The notes under the pieces were generated by a model that saw only the letters and a program-made list of their open reading frames with translations, was not told where the DNA came from and searched no databases. From assembly GCA_019637295.1 (NCBI GenBank), contig JAHBVX010000002.1:434001-498000 (forward strand): 64,000 nucleotides of DNA, written 5' to 3'. The stretch is from Polyangiaceae bacterium. GTDB taxonomy: Bacteria > Myxococcota_A > Polyangia > Polyangiales > Polyangiaceae. How positions within the stretch are numbered: the stretch's first letter is position 1; every line of letters begins with the position of its first letter. The translations under genes and the position numbers were made by a program. Below are positions 15,111 to 23,988 of the stretch, one piece after another.

Positions 15111-16400
15111 TCAGAGCTTGCGAGGTCGAGGCAAGTTGTACTGGTCGAGGCGATTGACGAGGGTCCGGCGCGAGATCCCCAGCAGCTTCGCGGCGCGGGT
15201 CTGGTTGCCGCCCGCCTGCTCCAGGGCGCCAAGCACGCGCGCACGCTCGTCGTCGAAGTCCCCCGAACCGGTCGAAGGAGCGCGGAGACCTGCGTCCGTC
15301 AGCAGCAAGTGCTGCGGCTCGATCACCGCGTCGCTGCACAGCACGAGAGCTCGCTCCATCACGTTCTTGAGCTCCCGCACGTTCCCGGGCCACGCATGTG
15401 CGCGGAGCGCGGCGAGAGAGGCGTTCGACAGGTTGGGCGCGGATCGGCCATGGCGAGCGGACGCTTCCGTCAGAAAGAGTCGCGCCAGCGCGGGGATCTC
15501 GAACAGGCGCGCCCGCAGCGGAGGGATGCGCAAGGTCAGCCCAGCCAGGCGGAAGTAGAGGTCACGGCGAAACGCACCGCTCGCCACTAGCTCCTCGAGC
15601 GGACGATTCGTGGCGGCGACGAAGCGGACGTCGATGGGTTTGGGCACCACGCTGCCGACGCGCAGGATGGTGCGGGTCTCGATGGCGCGCAGCAGCTTGG
15701 CCTGGGTCGAGAGCGGCAGCTCCGCCACCTCGTCGAAGAACACGGTCCCGCGGTGCCCGGCCTCCAGCAAGCCGACCTTCGCGCCGTGGGCACCGGTGAA
15801 GGCGCCGCGCTCGTGCCCGAACAGCTCGCTCTCGAGCAGGCTCTCGCTGAGGGCGGCGCAGTTGAGGCTGACCAGCGGGCCGCCGGCCCGCGGGGAGGCG
15901 CGGTGGATGCGCTCAGCCGTCACGTCCTTGCCCACGCCCGTCTCGCCCAGCAGGATCACGCTCAGGTCGCTGCGGCTCACCCGCTCGATCAGCGCGTCGA
16001 GGGTCTCGCGTTCGGGGCGGCCTTCGCCAGTCGGCCGGGTGGACTGGACGGACAAGAACGCCCCGCCCAAGTCGATGACGTCCCCCGGCGCCACGACCGC
16101 GCGCTCCCCCGCGCGCAACACGACGCTGCCAACGCGGGTGCCGTTGTGACTACCCAAGTCCACGATGCTGATGTTCGCGTCCACGACGATGCGCGCGTGC
16201 TCTCGAGACACGGAGGGGTGATCAATCGAGAGATCTGCCGTGCGCGACCGGCCCACGACGAGTGCGCCGCGCGTGGGGAGCGTTGCCGCGGCGTAGCCGC
16301 CCTCCCAGAACGCGATCACGCGCTCCTCGGGGGCGTCGGCGCCGAGCTCGACTCGCGTTCGCGTCTTCTGATCGTCGGTAGTCACGCTGGCGGTGGCCAC
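15111..16400 (-). CDS. FHA-domain sigma-54-dependent transcriptional activator
   Basis: This 429-residue enhancer-binding protein has an N-terminal FHA domain (about 25-115: GALVVGRSRTADLSI, SVSREHA, LGSHNGT) that should bind phosphothreonine. The AAA+ domain has Walker A GETGVGKD, the sigma-54 contact loop GAFTGA, FFDEVAEL and a GNVRELKN sensor. A Fis-type HTH ends the protein (GGNQTRAAKLLGISRRTL). Such proteins are usually controlled by Hanks-type kinases, and a kinase gene starts divergently 99 bp away. The stop lies 5 bp before puuD, so it probably heads that operon, possibly linking urate oxidation to phosphorylation signals (inference). Confidence 0.92.
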   Translation of the reverse strand: MATASVTTDDQKTRTRVELGADAPEERVIAFWEGGYAAATLPTRGALVVGRSRTADLSIDHPSVSREHARIVVDANISIVDLGSHNGTRVGSVVLRAGERAVVAPGDVIDLGGAFLSVQSTRPTGEGRPERETLDALIERVSRSDLSVILLGETGVGKDVTAERIHRASPRAGGPLVSLNCAALSESLLESELFGHERGAFTGAHGAKVGLLEAGHRGTVFFDEVAELPLSTQAKLLRAIETRTILRVGSVVPKPIDVRFVAATNRPLEELVASGAFRRDLYFRLAGLTLRIPPLRARLFEIPALARLFLTEASARHGRSAPNLSNASLAALRAHAWPGNVRELKNVMERALVLCSDAVIEPQHLLLTDAGLRAPSTGSGDFDDERARVLGALEQAGGNQTRAAKLLGISRRTLVNRLDQYNLPRPRKL

Positions 16401-16499
16401 GATACCAGCCCCGGGCGTGAGAGCGGGAGCCGGTTTGACCCCCGCTGCCGCGCCCCTCCTTGCATCCCGAGCCAGAAGCGGGGAAAGTTCCGGATCAGG

Positions 16500-17954
16500 A
16501 TGCCCGTGCGTTCCGAGTCGCTGCTGTCGCCCGGCGAGCGCCTCGATCGCTACCAGCTCGTGCTACCGCTCGCGGCCGGCGGGATGGCAGAGGTCTGGCT
16601 CGCCCGCCTGCGCGGCAAGCGCGGCTTCGAGCGGCTGTTCGCCGTCAAGACGGTGCTGGCCGAGCTGTCGAAGAGCCCCCGGGTGCAGCGCACGTTCGTG
16701 ACCGAAGCGCGGATCGCCGCGGCCATCCGCCATCCCAACGTCGCCGAGATCATCGACGTTGGGGAGCACCGCGGGCACCTGTACTTGGTGCTCGAGTACG
16801 TCGAAGGCGGGTCGCTCTCGCAGCTGCGCCGCAAGCTGGCGGACGCCGGTGAAGCGTTCCCCTTGGGGGTGGCCCTGCGGGTGGCATCGGACGTCAGCCG
16901 CGGACTGCACGCCGCGCACACCTTGCGCGGTGACTCCGGCACGGCGGTGCCCGTAGTCCACCGCGACGTCTCACCCCAGAACGTGCTGGTGGGGCGTGCC
17001 GGCGGAGTGAAGCTGATCGATTTCGGGATCGCGAAGGCTGTGCATACTGCGGCGGAAGAGACGGGGGTCGGGATGGTGGCCGGCAAGGTCTGGTACATGG
17101 CGCCCGAGCAAGCGCTGAGCGGGGGCGTCGACGCGCGCACGGACGTGTGGGGAGTCGGCGCGGTGCTGCACCATCTGCTCGCGGGTCACCCGCCGTACAT
17201 CTCGTCGAGCGAGGGCGAGGCCATGGCGGCGCTGTGCTCGGGCGAATCGCCGCCCCGGCTGACGACGGTGCCCGACGTGGTCTCCGAGGTGCTCGCTCGG
17301 TCGCTCGCGTACGAGCCCCGGGATCGCTACTCGAGTGCACATGAGCTGCACATCGCGCTCGAGAGCGCCATCTCGGTCACCGTGGGTGCAGCTCCGGCCA
17401 GCGAGGTGGCCGCGCTCGTGGAGCGCGTGCTGCGAGCCGAGTTGGAGGACATGCGAACGCGCATCGCGTCGGCGCTGTCCAGCATCGAGCACTCTGCGCC
17501 CGAGCCGGAGGCGAGTCTGCGGCCTGCCCCGGTCGCTGCGCCGGAGGCAGCCGAAGCCGCGCCGCCACGGCCACCTCCTCAGTCGCTAGCAGGGCTTCCG
17601 GGGTGGACGCCTCGTGCGGACCCGAAGCCCAGAGGCAGCCTGGTGTGGGTGGGCGTGGCGGTCGGCTGCATGGTCTTCGCGCTCGGCGTGCTGCTGTCGT
17701 TCGTGCGCTCCCGGCCCGAGGCGCCAGCGCTGGACCCGGCGCCCGTGCAAGCGCTCGCGGAGCCTGGCGCGGAGGCGGTGCCGACCGCGGAAGTCGAGAG
17801 ACCTATCGTCGTGGTGGGTGGGGCGGCAGAGCCCGAGCCCGTCGGCCAGGATGCCAAGGTAGTCGCGCCGTCCTCGCGCCGCGTCGCTGTCCCTCCCAAG
17901 AAGCCAGCCCAACCCAAGAGCGTGATCGATGTCCTGGGCGAGACGCGCAAGTAG
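16500..17954 (+). CDS. Hanks-type Ser/Thr protein kinase with TM anchor (module A)
   Basis: The 484-residue product from ATG 16500 has a kinase domain (about 20-290): Gly loop LAAGGMAEVW, AVKTV lysine, catalytic loop VVHRDVSPQN, LIDFGIAKA and the MAPEQ activation end. The catalytic-loop Lys of HRDxK is Ser here (HRDVSPQN), a variant common in myxobacterial kinases and thought active. A Pro/Ala-rich linker and one TM helix (about 382-404, VWVGVAVGCMVFALGVLLSF) precede a 75-residue extracytoplasmic tail. It overlaps the next TPR gene by 26 bp. Possible targets include the FHA activator transcribed divergently. Confidence 0.92.
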   Translation: MPVRSESLLSPGERLDRYQLVLPLAAGGMAEVWLARLRGKRGFERLFAVKTVLAELSKSPRVQRTFVTEARIAAAIRHPNVAEIIDVGEHRGHLYLVLEYVEGGSLSQLRRKLADAGEAFPLGVALRVASDVSRGLHAAHTLRGDSGTAVPVVHRDVSPQNVLVGRAGGVKLIDFGIAKAVHTAAEETGVGMVAGKVWYMAPEQALSGGVDARTDVWGVGAVLHHLLAGHPPYISSSEGEAMAALCSGESPPRLTTVPDVVSEVLARSLAYEPRDRYSSAHELHIALESAISVTVGAAPASEVAALVERVLRAELEDMRTRIASALSSIEHSAPEPEASLRPAPVAAPEAAEAAPPRPPPQSLAGLPGWTPRADPKPRGSLVWVGVAVGCMVFALGVLLSFVRSRPEAPALDPAPVQALAEPGAEAVPTAEVERPIVVVGGAAEPEPVGQDAKVVAPSSRRVAVPPKKPAQPKSVIDVLGETRK

Positions 17955-18858
17955 CATCGCGGCTGGTGCGGCGCTCGGACTGACGCCGCAGCTGGCGAGC
18001 GCCAGCGAAGCCGAGGCTCGGGCTGACTCCTTGTTCCGGGAGGGCAAGGCGCTGTTGGAGCGCGGTGAGATCGCCGCCGCGTGCGAGCGGCTGGCGCAGA
18101 GCCAAGCGCTCGATCCAGGGCTCGGCACCCTCGGCTTGCTGGCGCTGTGCCATGAGCGACAAGGCAAGACCGCCAGCGCGTGGCGCGAGTACCGCGCCGT
18201 CGCCGAGCTCGCGCGCGCGCAAGGGCAAGCCGAGCGCGAACGCGTAGCGCTGACGCGGGCGCGCGAGCTGGAGCCCAAGCTGGCGAAGTTGACGGTGCGC
18301 GTCCCCCGGCTGGTGCCGAACCTCGTCGTCGAGCTCGACGGCGAGGCCATCGAGCCGGGTGATGCGCTGCCCGTGGATGCGGGGTCGCTGGTACTGCGAG
18401 CGCGCGCGCCGGGACATCGGGATCACGAGCAGGTCGTGCGCGTCGCCGCCGGCCCCGGCGAGCAGTCCGTGACGCTGCCCGCGCTCGAGCCGAACCCGCC
18501 GGCTGAGCAGCCCGAGCGGGCCCCGTCGTTCCTCGAGCGCAACACCGTCGCGTTGACCGCGCTGGGCGTCGGGGTCGTCGGGCTCGCGGTGGGGACGGCC
18601 TTCGGGCTCAGCGCGCGCTCCAAGCACCAGGAGTCCGACGCCTTCTGCGACGCGAGCAATCGCTGCGATCCGCGCGGGATCGAGCTCCGGGACGCAGCGA
18701 TTGCGCGAGCCACCTGGTCAACGGTGGGCTTCGCCGTGGGGGTCGCTGGTGTGGCCACGGGGACGACGCTGCTGGTGCTCGAACGCGGTCAGTCGGGGCG
18801 GGCCGTGCGGCTCGAGCTATCGGCGGGTCTGGGCGCCCAGCTCGCGGGTCGGTTTTGA
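17929..18858 (+). CDS. TPR/PEGA-like periplasmic protein (module A)
   Basis: This 309-residue protein has a signal peptide (AAGAALGLTPQLASA) and TPR-like helices (about 28-115: REGKALLERGEIAAACERLA, LGTLGLLALCHERQGKTASAW). A PEGA-like beta sandwich (about 120-180: VRVPRLVPNLVVELDGEAI) and two C-terminal hydrophobic helices (about 205-225 and 262-282) follow. Between the helices is a small Cys-containing loop. It is translationally coupled to the kinase and is paralogous to the protein at 20359-21351. I infer a sensor or scaffold that works with the kinase's outer tail; the exact role is unknown. Confidence 0.8.
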   Translation: MSWARRASSIAAGAALGLTPQLASASEAEARADSLFREGKALLERGEIAAACERLAQSQALDPGLGTLGLLALCHERQGKTASAWREYRAVAELARAQGQAERERVALTRARELEPKLAKLTVRVPRLVPNLVVELDGEAIEPGDALPVDAGSLVLRARAPGHRDHEQVVRVAAGPGEQSVTLPALEPNPPAEQPERAPSFLERNTVALTALGVGVVGLAVGTAFGLSARSKHQESDAFCDASNRCDPRGIELRDAAIARATWSTVGFAVGVAGVATGTTLLVLERGQSGRAVRLELSAGLGAQLAGRF

Positions 18859-18928
18859 GCGCCCCTGGCTCACCCCGGGGTCCGCGTGATACCTTTGCCG
18901 GGCGGCCAAATAGCCTTCCTTCCAGGTC

Positions 18929-20359
18929 ATGACGGGCACAGCGGAAATCACTCCGGGGACGGTCGTTGCGGCGCGCTACCGCCTCCTGCGGCGTCTTGGC
19001 CAAGGGGGCATGGGCTCGGTCTACGAAGTCGAACACCAGGTGACCGGCCAGCGGCTCGCGCTCAAGCTGCTCGACCCGAGGCTGACCACGGACAGCGTCA
19101 TGCTCGAGCGCTTCCGTCGCGAGTCCCAGGCCCCGGCCCGCATCGACAGTGACCACGTGGTGAAGGTCACGGACGCGGACGTGGCCCCCGAGCTCGACGG
19201 TGCCCCCTTCCTCGTCATGGAGCTGCTGCGCGGAGAGAGCTTCGACGATCTGCTCAAGCGCCGGGGTCGCCTGCCGGTGGATGAAGCGCTCGTCTACCTG
19301 CGACAGATGGCGCGGGCGCTCGACCGCGCGCATCGGATCGGCATCGTCCATCGCGACATCAAGCCGGAAAACCTGTTTCTGACCGAGCGCGAGGACGGCA
19401 CGCCGCTCGTCAAGCTGCTCGATTTCGGGATCGCGAAGCTGACGGAAGCCGGTGGCGGACTGCAGTCCAAGACGGCGACCGGCGAGGTGTTCGGCACGCC
19501 GCTCTACATGTCGCCGGAGCAGACGCTGGGTCGTGTGGACAAGATCGCGCCGCAGACCGACGTCTGGGCGCTCGGCATCTTCGCCCACAAAGTGCTGGTG
19601 GGTGACGAGCCCTGGACGGCCGAGACGCTGCCTCACCTGATCGCGCAGGTCGCGTACGAGCCGCTCCCGGTCCCGAGCGAGCGCGGGTCCTCGCTCGGAC
19701 CTGGCTTCGATGGCTGGTTCGCTCGGGCTTGCGCGCGCGAGCCGTCCGAGCGGTTTCCGTCGGCAGGCGAGGCCGTGCGTGAGCTGGCGGACGCCCTCGG
19801 GCAGCCGGACCTGGGCGTGCACTCCCGCGATGGAGGCGAGGTGTCGAGCGCACTGCGCTCGTCGTCGCGGGACGTCGCGTTCGCGGAGACCGCCCTCGGC
19901 GGCACCGGCGGCTCCCTCGGCACGGACACGCTGACGGCGCAGGTCGCGCCGGGGAAGCCGCGTTCTCGGGTGGTCGTCGCTGCAGGCGCAGCGGCCGCCA
20001 TCGCCGCCGCGGTGGTCGCGTTGGTGGCGATGCGACCTGGAGCGGTCGCCGAGAGCCCCGAGCCCGCGGCGTCCACGGGCGCCCATGGCGCTGCGAGCGA
20101 GCTGACGTCGCCCGCGACGGCCCCCGCTGGGCCGGTGGTAGAGCTTGCTGCCGAGTCCGACGCGGCGGACGCCGCCGTCGCGCTCGAGGTGCCCAAGGTC
20201 GCCGGGCCTCGCCCCAAGGTCGGCGGCCCGCTGGCCACGACCAAGGCTACGGCTGCGACCACGGCGGCGACCGCTGCGCCGCCCAGCACCGCCCCGCCAA
20301 CCGCTACCGCGGAGCCGCCGAAGCCCCCGGTGCAAGGACTCCCCGAAGGACGCCACTGA
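18929..20359 (+). CDS. Hanks-type Ser/Thr protein kinase with TM anchor (module B)
   Basis: This 476-residue protein has a canonical kinase domain (about 12-285): LGQGGMGSVYEVEH, ALKLL, IVHRDIKPENLFL, LLDFGIAKL and TPLYMSPEQTLG. All catalytic residues are present. A linker follows, then one TM helix (about 350-372, VVVAAGAAAAIAAAVVALVA) and an Ala/Thr/Pro-rich extracytoplasmic tail. Its stop overlaps the start of the next TPR gene (ATGA), so it heads a chain of five coupled genes that ends in the selenoprotein. Family activity is phosphorylation of Ser/Thr on cytoplasmic targets; the target is unknown. Confidence 0.93.
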   Translation: MTGTAEITPGTVVAARYRLLRRLGQGGMGSVYEVEHQVTGQRLALKLLDPRLTTDSVMLERFRRESQAPARIDSDHVVKVTDADVAPELDGAPFLVMELLRGESFDDLLKRRGRLPVDEALVYLRQMARALDRAHRIGIVHRDIKPENLFLTEREDGTPLVKLLDFGIAKLTEAGGGLQSKTATGEVFGTPLYMSPEQTLGRVDKIAPQTDVWALGIFAHKVLVGDEPWTAETLPHLIAQVAYEPLPVPSERGSSLGPGFDGWFARACAREPSERFPSAGEAVRELADALGQPDLGVHSRDGGEVSSALRSSSRDVAFAETALGGTGGSLGTDTLTAQVAPGKPRSRVVVAAGAAAAIAAAVVALVAMRPGAVAESPEPAASTGAHGAASELTSPATAPAGPVVELAAESDAADAAVALEVPKVAGPRPKVGGPLATTKATAATTAATAAPPSTAPPTATAEPPKPPVQGLPEGRH

Positions 20360-21351: not shown

Positions 21352-21698
21352 CGTCTCGCTCGGGAGCTGCCGCTCTCGTGGCGCTGCTGAGCTCCTGCGC
21401 GTCGGTGCTCGGCGTCGACGACGAGCGCAGGAGCGCCGTCGACGCCGTCTGCGAATGCTACGACGACGAGCAGGACTGCCGGAAGCACGTCTCGACGCGG
21501 CTCGACCGGGCTCTCGCCGCGGACAGGGAGGCGTGGCTCCAGAACTTTCACTCGGATGCCTGCGGGCAGGGCAGCTGCAGCCAGGTGAGCGCCTGCCTGG
21601 ACTTGGAGCCCACCTGCGGGGTGCAATACGACAAGTGCGAGGACGAGTTCGCGCTCTGTTGTCCTGGCTTCACCTGCGTGGACGGAGCGTGCCAGTGA
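21348..21698 (+). CDS. Short Cys-rich lipoprotein
   Basis: GTG 21348 overlaps the preceding stop (GTGA) and gives 116 residues with a lipoprotein signal (LVALLSSC, Cys 17). The mature part is Cys-rich (CECYDDEQDC, CGQGSC, CLDLEPTC, CCPGFTC). It is a short relative of the N-terminal third of the next protein: both share a DREAWLQNF / DRSAWLEQF helix, then CGQ and CLD..P.C. The Cys are probably disulfide-bonded in the envelope. A longer in-frame start at 21195 is the antisense-like overlap of the TPR gene and is rejected. Confidence 0.7.
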   Translation: MTSRSGAAALVALLSSCASVLGVDDERRSAVDAVCECYDDEQDCRKHVSTRLDRALAADREAWLQNFHSDACGQGSCSQVSACLDLEPTCGVQYDKCEDEFALCCPGFTCVDGACQ

Positions 21699-23002
21699 GG
21701 TTCTCGACGCTGCTGCGCCTGGTCGCGCTGCTCGGCATGGTCGTGCTCGGCTGCAGCAGCATGCTCGGACTAGACGACTACGAGAGCGCGCCCGAGCGCC
21801 TCTGCGAGCTGTCGGTCAAGTGTTCGACGGAGTGCCCGAGCGGAGACAGCCTGTGCCGCCAGGGCCTGCTGGCCGAGTGTCTCGCTCGCATCGACCAGTC
21901 CCTCGGCCAGGCCGAGAGCGCGGATCGCTCTGCGTGGCTCGAGCAGTTCGTGCGCGGGCGCTGCGGGCAGCAGTGCACTGGGGCGCGCCGCTGCCTGGAC
22001 TTCCCCCCGGTTTGTGAGGGCACCTTCGATGCTTGCGCGCGCGACGATCACTGTTGCGGCTTCTTGAAGGGCAAAGCCGGCTGCGACGGCAAGCCGGGGC
22101 AGTGCTGCATCTCGGCCGGAGTGGCCTGCACGGACGACGGCCAATGCTGCGGCGGGCTGCCCTGCGTGAGACAGGCGGGCGAGACCAAGACCTGCGGCGG
22201 GACCGTGTGCTTCGACGAAGGCGAGCTCTGCCAAGAGAACGCCCAGTGCTGCACCAACCGCTGCGTCTCGGGCGTCTGCGCGCTGGAGATCTGCAGCGGG
22301 CTGGGCTTCGAGTGCCAGGGCGACAAGTGCTGTCCGGGTCTCGAGTGCCAGGCCGGCAAGTGCGGCGTGCCTGCATGCCTCGAAGAGCGCGCACCGTGCG
22401 ATCCCGACGCGTCCCAGTCCACCTGTTGCGACGGCACCGAGTGCAAGCAAGTACTGCCGGACGACCCTCTGGGCAAGCAGCTCGCCGGGCTGTGCCTCAA
22501 GGTGGTCGAGCAGTGTCTGCCCGTCGACGTGCCGTGTGACCGACTGAACGACGGGCTCGGCTGTTGTGACGGGCTGGCCTGCGCGGCGGCGACCAAGACC
22601 TGTAGCGCCGTGTGCACGCTGGACGACGCCTTCTGCACCAACGATCAGGAGTGCTGCAGCAAGTTCTGCGACTCGGCGACCAACAAGTGCGGCTCGTGTA
22701 CGACGGGCTTCTGCCTGAGCGACGCCGACTGCTGCTCACTCAACTGCGTGCGGTCCAGCGGCGCTACCCAGGGCACCTGCGGCTTCGACTGCAAGCCCCC
22801 GAGTTGCCACGGCGTCAAGAGCGTGGGGCCGCCCCTCGGCAGCAAGCTCGACTCCGAAATCACCCCCAGCTGCACCGATCCCCCGACGGTCGCCTGCATC
22901 TTGGCGATCTGCGCGCTGGATCCGTATTGCTGCTGCAGTGCGTGGGATCAGACCTGCGTGAGCAAAGCAGAGAATCACGCCAGCTGTAGCCAGCTGCCGT
23001 GA
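21695..23002 (+). CDS. Large Cys-rich lipoprotein with CC-repeat modules
   Basis: GTG 21695 again overlaps the previous stop (GTGA). The 435-residue lipoprotein (LGMVVLGC, Cys 20) has an N-terminal domain shared with the upstream small lipoprotein. At least eight short modules follow, in a C-x-x-x-x-x-C-C-x(3-5)-C-x(4-6)-C pattern (for example DDHCCGFLKGKAGC, DGQCCGGLPC, NAQCCTNRC, QECCSKFC, DADCCSLNC). This is the dickkopf/colipase-like disulfide pattern common in myxobacterial surface lipoproteins. The C-terminal domain has a CCCSAWDQTC signature. It should need oxidative folding, which makes a coupled redox protein downstream suggestive (inference). Confidence 0.82.
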   Translation: MRFSTLLRLVALLGMVVLGCSSMLGLDDYESAPERLCELSVKCSTECPSGDSLCRQGLLAECLARIDQSLGQAESADRSAWLEQFVRGRCGQQCTGARRCLDFPPVCEGTFDACARDDHCCGFLKGKAGCDGKPGQCCISAGVACTDDGQCCGGLPCVRQAGETKTCGGTVCFDEGELCQENAQCCTNRCVSGVCALEICSGLGFECQGDKCCPGLECQAGKCGVPACLEERAPCDPDASQSTCCDGTECKQVLPDDPLGKQLAGLCLKVVEQCLPVDVPCDRLNDGLGCCDGLACAAATKTCSAVCTLDDAFCTNDQECCSKFCDSATNKCGSCTTGFCLSDADCCSLNCVRSSGATQGTCGFDCKPPSCHGVKSVGPPLGSKLDSEITPSCTDPPTVACILAICALDPYCCCSAWDQTCVSKAENHASCSQLP

Positions 23003-23541
23003 GCGACCTGATGCGCGCCGCGGCCTTTCGGCTCGAGGGCCTGGATGGTCGAGTCCACCGGCTGGAGGACTACGCCGGGCGCTGGCTCTTGCTCGTGATG
23101 CATCGGCATCTCGGCTGACTGCCGTGCCGAGAGCACCTGTCGCAGTTGCGACAGCAGCAAGCACAGCTCGACGAGCTGGGCCTTGCGGTGTGCGTCGTGA
23201 CGTTCTCGACTCTGCCGGCGGCCCGCGGCTACGTCGAGGAGACGGCCGTCGATTGGCCCATACTGATCGACACGGACCGGAGCCTGTATCGCGCGTATGG
23301 GATGGACTCGGCTCCACGCTGGCGCGTCTATGGTCCGCGCACTTGGCTGGCCTACGTTCGCCTCGTGCTGCGGGGGCGTCGGCTTGCCGCCGCGAGCGGG
23401 CAAGACGTCACTCAGCGCGGCGGCGACGTGCTGATCGATCCCCAGGGTGCCGTGCGGCTGCTCCACGTCGGGCGCGATCCCGCCGATCGTCCTCGAGTAT
23501 CGGCGCTGCTCGACGTCGTGCGTCGCCACACGCGCCGCTGA
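22999..23541 (+). CDS. Prx-like2 (AhpC/TSA-2) selenoprotein, UxxC, Sec at TGA 23116-23118
   Basis: GTG 22999 overlaps the preceding stop (GTGA). The frame gives 180 residues if TGA at 23116-23118 (codon 40) is read as selenocysteine. Before it lies a normal redoxin N-terminus (AAFRLEGLDGRVHRLEDY, WLLLVMHRHLG). After it the frame continues as LPCREHLSQL, the alpha-1 start of the family, then VTFSTLPAARGYVEET, WPILIDTDRSLYRAYGM and a final GGDVLIDPQGAVRLLHVG strand. The TGA falls exactly where these redoxins have the first Cys of CxxC, giving U-L-P-C. A hairpin with bSECIS geometry follows. The relatives include SelL (UxxU). The role is thiol/peroxide redox chemistry; Sec decoding is strongly inferred, not proven. 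ATG 23011 is an alternative start. Confidence 0.88.
23137..23154 (+). promoter_or_regulatory. Putative bacterial SECIS hairpin
   Basis: Positions 23137-23143 (CTGTCGC) pair perfectly with 23148-23154 (GCGACAG), leaving the tetraloop AGTT. The loop begins 25 nt after the last base of the TGA and has G as its second base. Known bacterial SECIS elements have the apical loop roughly 16-37 nt after UGA with a G among the first loop bases, bound by SelB. The hairpin lies inside coding sequence, as required. Confidence 0.8.
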
Positions 23542-23988
23542 TCACAGCAGCGAGAGTACGACGATCACGAGCAGCATCACCGCCGTGCCGCCAAGCACCA
23601 GCCCGAGGCAGCCTAGGGTGACGACCAGTGGCCGTTTGTCCTTGGGTGCGGCTGGCGGGGGCGTGCCCGTCGCCCACGCCTGGCGGTGGTTCTCCAGGTG
23701 CGCGCTGAACACGTCCAGCGCACCCCCGAGGAAGCCGAAGGGGTCGACCAACGCCAGGATGCTTGCCTCATACACGACCGAGCAGCGCTGCTCGTCGACC
23801 GGGGTGACCGTCACGATGACGTCCATGGGGTTGGTCAGGCCGAAGCCTCGGCTGAACTTGGCGAAGCCCGCCGTCGGGTTGTCGATCACCAAGCGGAAGC
23901 TGCCGATTTCGCTGCCCGCGGCGCGCGCGAGCCCATACGTGATGTGCGCGGGCGCGTCGACGAACAGCTCCCTCTTCTTGGATGCCAC
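23542..23988 (-). CDS. Hypothetical protein with C-terminal membrane anchor
   Basis: GTG 23988 gives 148 residues beginning VASKKRELFVDAP. The soluble domain of about 105 residues (NPTAGFAKFSRGFG, DVIVTVTPVDEQRCSVVYE) resembles a small SRPBCC- or DUF-type beta fold. A Pro/Lys linker and one C-terminal TM helix follow (VVTLGCLGLVLGGTAVMLLVI). The frame extends to ATG 24129, but that start would overlap the ribosome-binding site of the divergent EF-hand gene. Its stop abuts the selenoprotein stop (convergent). No function is recognised. Confidence 0.6.
   Translation of the reverse strand: MASKKRELFVDAPAHITYGLARAAGSEIGSFRLVIDNPTAGFAKFSRGFGLTNPMDVIVTVTPVDEQRCSVVYEASILALVDPFGFLGGALDVFSAHLENHRQAWATGTPPPAAPKDKRPLVVTLGCLGLVLGGTAVMLLVIVVLSLL

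What the first reader, a model, noticed from the sequence alone, without database searches (positions are those of the whole stretch)
22999..23541. Unannotated selenoprotein: Prx-like2 redoxin with UxxC motif in a kinase-led operon
Seen: one frame from GTG 22999 to TGA 23541 is interrupted only by TGA 23116-23118. Both flanks read as one redoxin, and the TGA sits at the first Cys of the family's CxxC (HRHLG-U-LPCREHL). A perfect 7-bp stem (23137-23143/23148-23154) with loop AGTT starts 25 nt after it, with a G at loop position 2. Known: bacterial SECIS loops lie about 16-37 nt from UGA, and Prx-like2 proteins include SelL with UxxU. Inference: Sec is inserted. A pseudogene or sequencing error would not be expected to put the stop exactly on the catalytic position with a correctly spaced hairpin.
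Basis: partly seen in the sequence, partly recalled or inferred. Interest (0 to 1): 0.94.

Follow-up and report, generated by a model that had tools for sequence, protein, structure and literature searches.

The report
Selenium-containing redox enzyme gene, SelL-related
A gene that looks broken by a stop codon is almost certainly read through to make a selenium-containing redox enzyme, a new example of a selenoprotein family that databases already know.

Summary
One frame, GTG 22999 to TGA 23541, is broken only by TGA 23116-23118. Read through, it scores 180 bits to NCBIfam NF040769 'SelL-related redox protein' (cut-off 120). The own genome has selA, selB, selD and tRNA-Sec. A scan with the part after the UGA found 11 relatives (44-54% identity; Thermodesulfobacteriota, Planctomycetota); the 10 that hold the codon all have TGA there. 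Over 116 distinct related loci that codon is TGA in 67, TGC/TGT in 48, ACG in 1 (partly chosen for TGA). The hairpin lies at the same distance from the UGA in 39 of 52 Sec-type genes against 2 of 30 Cys-type genes, and its stem covaries in the window's clade. Sequencing error or gene decay is excluded for practical purposes. Sec itself has not been seen chemically. Family, UxxC motif and decoding are known: a new member of a known kind, isolated in its own order and perhaps horizontally acquired. The 'kinase-led operon' is not conserved in the relatives examined.

The parts
22999..23541 (+). SelL-related redoxin gene, 180 residues, GTG start, TGA stop (23539-23541), internal UGA read as Sec
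   Evidence: NF040769 180 bits; PF00578 58.9 bits
22999..23002 (+). GTGA overlap: start codon of this gene with the stop of the upstream ORF 21455-23002
   Evidence: sequence
23116..23118 (+). UGA codon 40, read as selenocysteine
   Evidence: TGA in 10 of 10 near relatives that hold the codon; TGA or TGC/TGT in 115 of 116 distinct related loci
23116..23127 (+). UxxC redox motif (Sec40-Leu-Pro-Cys43)
23137..23154 (+). SECIS-like hairpin: stem 23137-23143/23148-23154, loop AGUU 23144-23147

Best explanation
The gene encodes a 180-residue thioredoxin-fold redox enzyme of the SelL-related / Prx-like type in which UGA 23116-23118 is decoded as selenocysteine. Shown by computation: the reading frame, the Sec/Cys exchange at this codon among relatives, the conserved covarying hairpin at fixed spacing, and selA, selB, selC and selD in the same genome. 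Inferred: SelB with Sec-tRNA-Sec binds the AGUU-loop hairpin and inserts Sec; Sec40, just before helix 41-52, is the attacking nucleophile and Cys43 resolves the intermediate as a selenenylsulfide that thioredoxin or another thiol reduces. The substrate (protein disulfide, peroxide or endoperoxide) is unknown; a thiol:disulfide or peroxide reductase is the most likely activity.
For: NF040769 180 bits, cut-off 120, and 11 of 11 clade members match it. Machinery: tRNA-Sec 70 bits, SelA 479 bits, SelB 272 bits, SelD 309 bits, each over its cut-off. TGA at the codon in 10 of 10 near relatives holding it and in 67 of 116 related loci, TGC/TGT in 48. Hairpin register: at least 6 of 7 pairs in 39 of 52 Sec-type and 2 of 30 Cys-type genes; excess over synonymous recoding z = 10.5 and 1.0. 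Loop Leu codon TTG in 37 of 38 Sec-type genes with Leu there, 0 of 21 Cys-type. Covariation in the clade. The four bacterial SECIS constraints printed in PMC13188914 are met. Of 10 order genomes with a Sec-type gene among the loci read, 9 have selB over cut-off, against 45 of 173 others. AlphaFold2 pLDDT 91.7.
Against: No protein or selenium evidence. For the window alone the hairpin is not significant (6.5% of synonymous recodings equal it; region z = -1.1). 13 of 52 Sec-type genes do not form at least 6 of 7 pairs at this register. One of the 10 genomes, G031, has only a selB fragment below the cut-off. The structure was taken from one of its own rows.
Confidence: 0.95

Rival explanations
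1. The TGA is a sequencing or assembly error, or a decayed gene, in a Cys-type redoxin.
For: A single in-frame stop in one genome is the usual look of this; the reads were not seen.
Against: TGA at the same codon in 10 of 10 near relatives holding it and 67 of 116 related loci; hairpin conserved and covarying; Sec machinery present.
Confidence: 0.01
2. The UGA is a real regulatory stop, or is read through at low level by an ordinary tRNA; the main product is a 39-residue peptide and Sec is not inserted.
For: Premature stopping competes with Sec insertion in known systems (recalled); no product has been measured here.
Against: The 140 residues after the UGA are conserved as a redoxin; Cys is the alternative residue in relatives; the hairpin and TTG codon mark Sec-type genes and not Cys-type ones.
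Confidence: 0.03
3. An overlapping ORF (22975-23529 or 22736-23317 on the minus strand, or 23124-23621 on the plus strand) is the real gene.
For: These ORFs are open and about as long.
Against: None of the three matches any Pfam family at E <= 1, while the redoxin frame scores 180 bits to NF040769.
Confidence: 0.01

Closest known systems
NCBIfam NF040769, SelL-related redox protein (subfamily model)
   Same: 180 bits over a cut-off of 120, residues 7-173 on model positions 3-172.
   Different: Nothing tested sets it apart; the model's own notes on Sec were not seen. In the own order only 6 of 183 genomes pass the cut-off.
Prx-like thiol:disulfide oxidoreductase selenoproteins (PF00578, UxxC/UxxU) of the catalogues in PMC1794560, PMC9312934 and PMC13188914
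   Same: PF00578 domain, UxxC motif, occurrence in Geobacter and other former Deltaproteobacteria.
   Different: The catalogue's reference protein (WP_010940744.1) was not aligned, so identity of the two groups is not shown.
Selenoprotein L (SelL)
   Same: Prx-like redoxin with Sec at the first motif position; one relative, L047, has UxxU.
Human prostamide/prostaglandin F synthase (PDB 9usa)
   Same: Fold: TM 0.77/0.84, rmsd 2.7, 20% identity; the entry title names Cys44 and Cys47, a CxxC spacing.
   Different: Cys instead of Sec; substrate in bacteria unknown. Bcp/PrxQ peroxiredoxins and ResA score alike, so the fold does not single out one activity.

Membership tests
Bacterial selenoprotein | In-frame UGA at a column where homologues have Cys | tested here: met
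   TGA 67, TGC 39, TGT 9, ACG 1 of 116 distinct loci
Bacterial selenoprotein | SECIS by the model in PMC13188914: loop 3-9 nt, upper stem 4-16 bp, G in the first two loop positions, 16-37 nt from UGA, MFE <= -7.5 | tested here: met
   Loop 4 nt, stem 7 bp, G at position 2, 25 nt, -10.5 kcal/mol
Bacterial selenoprotein | SelA, SelB, SelD and tRNA-Sec in the genome | tested here: met
Bacterial selenoprotein | Sec in the protein | not testable with these tools
   Needs mass spectrometry or selenium labelling
SelL-related redox protein (NF040769) | Score over the curated cut-off | tested here: met
   180 bits, cut-off 120
SelL proper | UxxU motif (recalled) | tested here: not met
   UxxC in the window
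Prx-like thiol:disulfide oxidoreductase selenoprotein | PF00578 domain with UxxC or UxxU | tested here: met
   PF00578 58.9 bits, cut-off 26; UxxC
Prx-like thiol:disulfide oxidoreductase selenoprotein | Groups with the catalogue's reference protein WP_010940744.1 | not tested
   That sequence was not fetched
Typical Sec peroxiredoxin (Prx) | TxxU motif (table in PMC13188914) | tested here: not met
   Residue 37 is His, not Thr

The most novel reading that the evidence does not exclude
The window gene and its ten nearest relatives form an all-Sec branch of the SelL-related family spread over three phyla, in which gene and SECIS travel together as a portable unit: the hairpin is overlaid on a near-invariant Gln-Leu(UUG) pair of the protein itself. 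Cys-type relatives mostly use CUC or CUG there and lack the hairpin, so the family is a natural series for asking how Sec and its SECIS are gained and lost together.
Probability: 0.55. Interest if true: 0.42.

Novelty: new member of a known kind. Interest (0 to 1): 0.3.

Why it matters
It corrects a gene that stop-obeying annotation would cut to 39 residues or drop. It gives strong comparative support for Sec in a SelL-related protein of this genome. It also offers a family in which Sec and Cys forms, with and without the SECIS hairpin, occur side by side, useful for testing what Sec buys over Cys. It does not change the known picture of bacterial Sec decoding.

Tried and rejected
Sequencing error or pseudogene: rejected on recurrence of TGA at one codon and on hairpin conservation.

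Overlapping ORFs as the real gene: no Pfam match at E <= 1 for the three tested.

Functional meaning of the 'kinase-led operon': the gene ends a run of same-strand ORFs with two Ser/Thr kinases. I scanned 20 selected neighbouring ORFs of 13 related loci; not every neighbour was scanned, and L125 not at all. Annotated domains include citrate synthase, ArgJ, Fic, amine oxidase, aldolase, aldo/keto reductase and two different ABC transporters. A kinase domain occurs in 3 of the 13 loci (L133 downstream, 153 bits; L104 and L105 upstream, frames cut by the locus end, 31.4 and 31.3 bits, just under the 31.7 cut-off). The L105 one shares 40% over 60 residues with the window kinase. I take this as background in kinase-rich genomes (recalled), but a weak link is not excluded.

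Rfam: only sub-threshold matches around the gene. The UGA-proximal 63 nt as a whole are not unusually stable.

Literature: no held paper has 'SelL-related', 'NF040769' or 'selenoprotein L-like'; other searches were made, seen as listings. Of PMC13188914, PMC9312934, PMC2398784, PMC1794560, PMC1088965 and PMC12013277 I saw term-found passages, some with table rows, no whole text. Most subscription papers are not covered.

Rows dropped or selected: one search held 117 rows; the window gene appears twice (WIN, L039) and is counted once. L131 and G315:C128 do not hold the codon and were left out. Of the 30 best loci were read. One search fetched 20 more places from the listings, 18 of them because the table showed a TGA, and one search added L070 and L071; weaker hits were not read. 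So 67 of 116 is not an unbiased proportion. The hairpin and tree sets keep rows by motif (R-H-F/L/Y for 52 Sec rows; R-H/Q/D-F/L/Y/V for 30 Cys rows). 15 further Sec loci (R-G-x-W/F-U types) were kept apart; they do not show this hairpin register (0 of 15 with at least 6 of 7 pairs). The other 19 of the 116 were in no set. Alignment A3 held selected rows and was not used for counting.

Full report
What is there. The frame GTG 22999 - TGA 23541 is open except for TGA 23116-23118. Read through, the 180-residue protein matches NF040769 'SelL-related redox protein' at 180 bits (cut-off 120), PF00578 AhpC-TSA at 58.9 bits and PF13911 at 52.8 bits. The TGA occupies the first position of the active-site CxxC: HRHLG-U-LPC. 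GTG 22999 overlaps the stop of the upstream Cys-rich, putative lipoprotein gene (GTGA).

Decoding machinery. The window's own assembly (7.65 Mb, 25 contigs, 98.47% complete, 1% contaminated by the tool's figures) has tRNA-Sec (70 bits, over cut-off; ARAGORN SeC, anticodon tca), SelA (479 bits), SelB (272 bits, over cut-off) and SelD (309 bits). SelD lies on the window's contig and itself has an in-frame TGA, at GGG-U-ARK. A second SelL-like gene with TGA at the same column lies about 7 kb from selD (L070). In the order, 54 of 183 genomes have selB over cut-off. Of 10 genomes with a Sec-type SelL-like gene among the loci read, 9 do; the tenth (G031) has only a 241-codon fragment near a contig end, below the cut-off. 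Of the other 173, 45 do (Fisher p = 8e-5, not corrected for kinship). Of 17 genomes with a Cys-type gene, listed by hand, 8 do.

Relatives. All 10 that hold the codon have TGA there, with HRHL[GAS]U[LP][PT]C. Over 116 distinct related loci, the codon is TGA in 67, TGC in 39, TGT in 9 and ACG in 1. Part of these loci were fetched because a TGA was listed, so the proportion is biased, but the place of the TGA is not. In-frame stops elsewhere occur in 4 loci, all at least 103 codons further on, towards the C-terminal end; L047 has a second TGA three codons on, that is UxxU. On a quick maximum-likelihood tree of 52 Sec and 30 Cys rows, with the codon masked, the Sec/Cys label needs 8 changes (3 forced by starred branches; shuffled mean 24.7), so Sec and Cys have replaced each other more than once. 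The window gene sits in an 11-row all-Sec branch (SH-aLRT 99) whose other members are Thermodesulfobacteriota and Planctomycetota. In its own order the best other match is 36% identical, and in other orders of its class 40-41%. The gene is thus isolated in its order, by horizontal transfer or by patchy retention. This is inference: the tree is quick and the sampling uneven.

SECIS. The window hairpin (7 bp, AGUU loop, 25 nt from UGA, -10.5 kcal/mol) meets the four constraints of the bacterial SECIS model printed in PMC13188914. Taken alone it is not remarkable: 6.5% of synonymous recodings do as well, and the 63-nt region folds with z = -1.1. The family is what convinces. At exactly this offset at least 6 of 7 pairs form in 39 of 52 Sec-type genes and in 2 of 30 Cys-type genes. 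Pairs exceed synonymous recoding by z = 10.5 in Sec-type genes and by 1.0 in Cys-type genes; rows are related, so z is not a clean probability. The Leu codon that forms the 3' part of the loop is TTG in 37 of 38 Sec-type genes with Leu there, in 0 of 21 Cys-type genes with Leu there, and in 101 of 1011 other Leu codons of the Sec-type genes. In the 11-row clade (all rows that hold the codon) the stem covaries: 94.8% of cells paired, 13 cells with double changes, covariation score 0.527 against a shuffled mean of 0.193 (0 of 500 as high). Two measures are weaker, pairs with double changes (15 of 500 as high) and further pair types (18 of 500). Slid registers score 0.104 at most. The structure was taken from the window row. 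Thirteen Sec-type genes lack the stem at this register; by eye some have it shifted, which I did not score.

Function. AlphaFold2 with the clade alignment gives mean pLDDT 91.7 and pTM 0.89; residue 40 sits just before helix 41-52, after strand 29-34, the usual thioredoxin-fold active-site place (the comparison is recalled). Foldseek's best solved structures include Bcp/PrxQ peroxiredoxins, ResA and human prostamide/PGF synthase 9usa (TM 0.77/0.84). The Thr of Sec peroxiredoxins (TxxU) is replaced by His37, and Cys43 is invariant in the clade. A two-residue selenol/thiol redox cycle of the thioredoxin or Prx-like2 type is therefore most likely; substrate and reductant are unknown. The neighbouring genes scanned give no hint.

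Known or new. Bacterial Prx-like UxxC/UxxU selenoproteins have been catalogued since the 2000s (PMC1794560, PMC9312934, PMC13188914; passages and table rows seen). Selenoproteins of Anaeromyxobacter dehalogenans are in the 2006 list; that this organism is a myxobacterium is recalled. NF040769 is already a curated model. The finding is correct but is a new member of a known kind.

Noticed in passing
L070 (G000:C12:897660-898151) and L097 (G000:C12:904961-905884): A second SelL-like gene with in-frame TGA in the own genome lies about 7 kb from selD, and selD itself has an in-frame TGA followed by a hairpin.
   Followed up: partly
L047 (G062:C191:29600-30079): A relative with two in-frame TGAs in the motif, read as UxxU.
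   Followed up: partly
L074-L078, L080-L082, L085-L091: Fifteen loci of related genomes with TGA in a R-G-x-W/F-U-x-x-C motif, a different Prx-like group without the hairpin register of the SelL-like genes (0 of 15).
   Followed up: partly
window 21725-23002 (+): Cys-rich, putative lipoprotein gene just upstream. Its only Pfam hit, Conotoxin_I2 (19.8 bits, cut-off 27), is below the cut-off and looks like Cys-pattern chance.
   Followed up: partly
window 15753-20359 (+): Two Ser/Thr protein kinase genes in the same-strand run upstream of the redoxin gene.
   Followed up: partly
window 23120-23193 (-): Sub-threshold Rfam hit to Twister-sister ribozyme (25.5 bits, gathering 34) on the strand opposite the SECIS; probably chance.
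   Followed up: no
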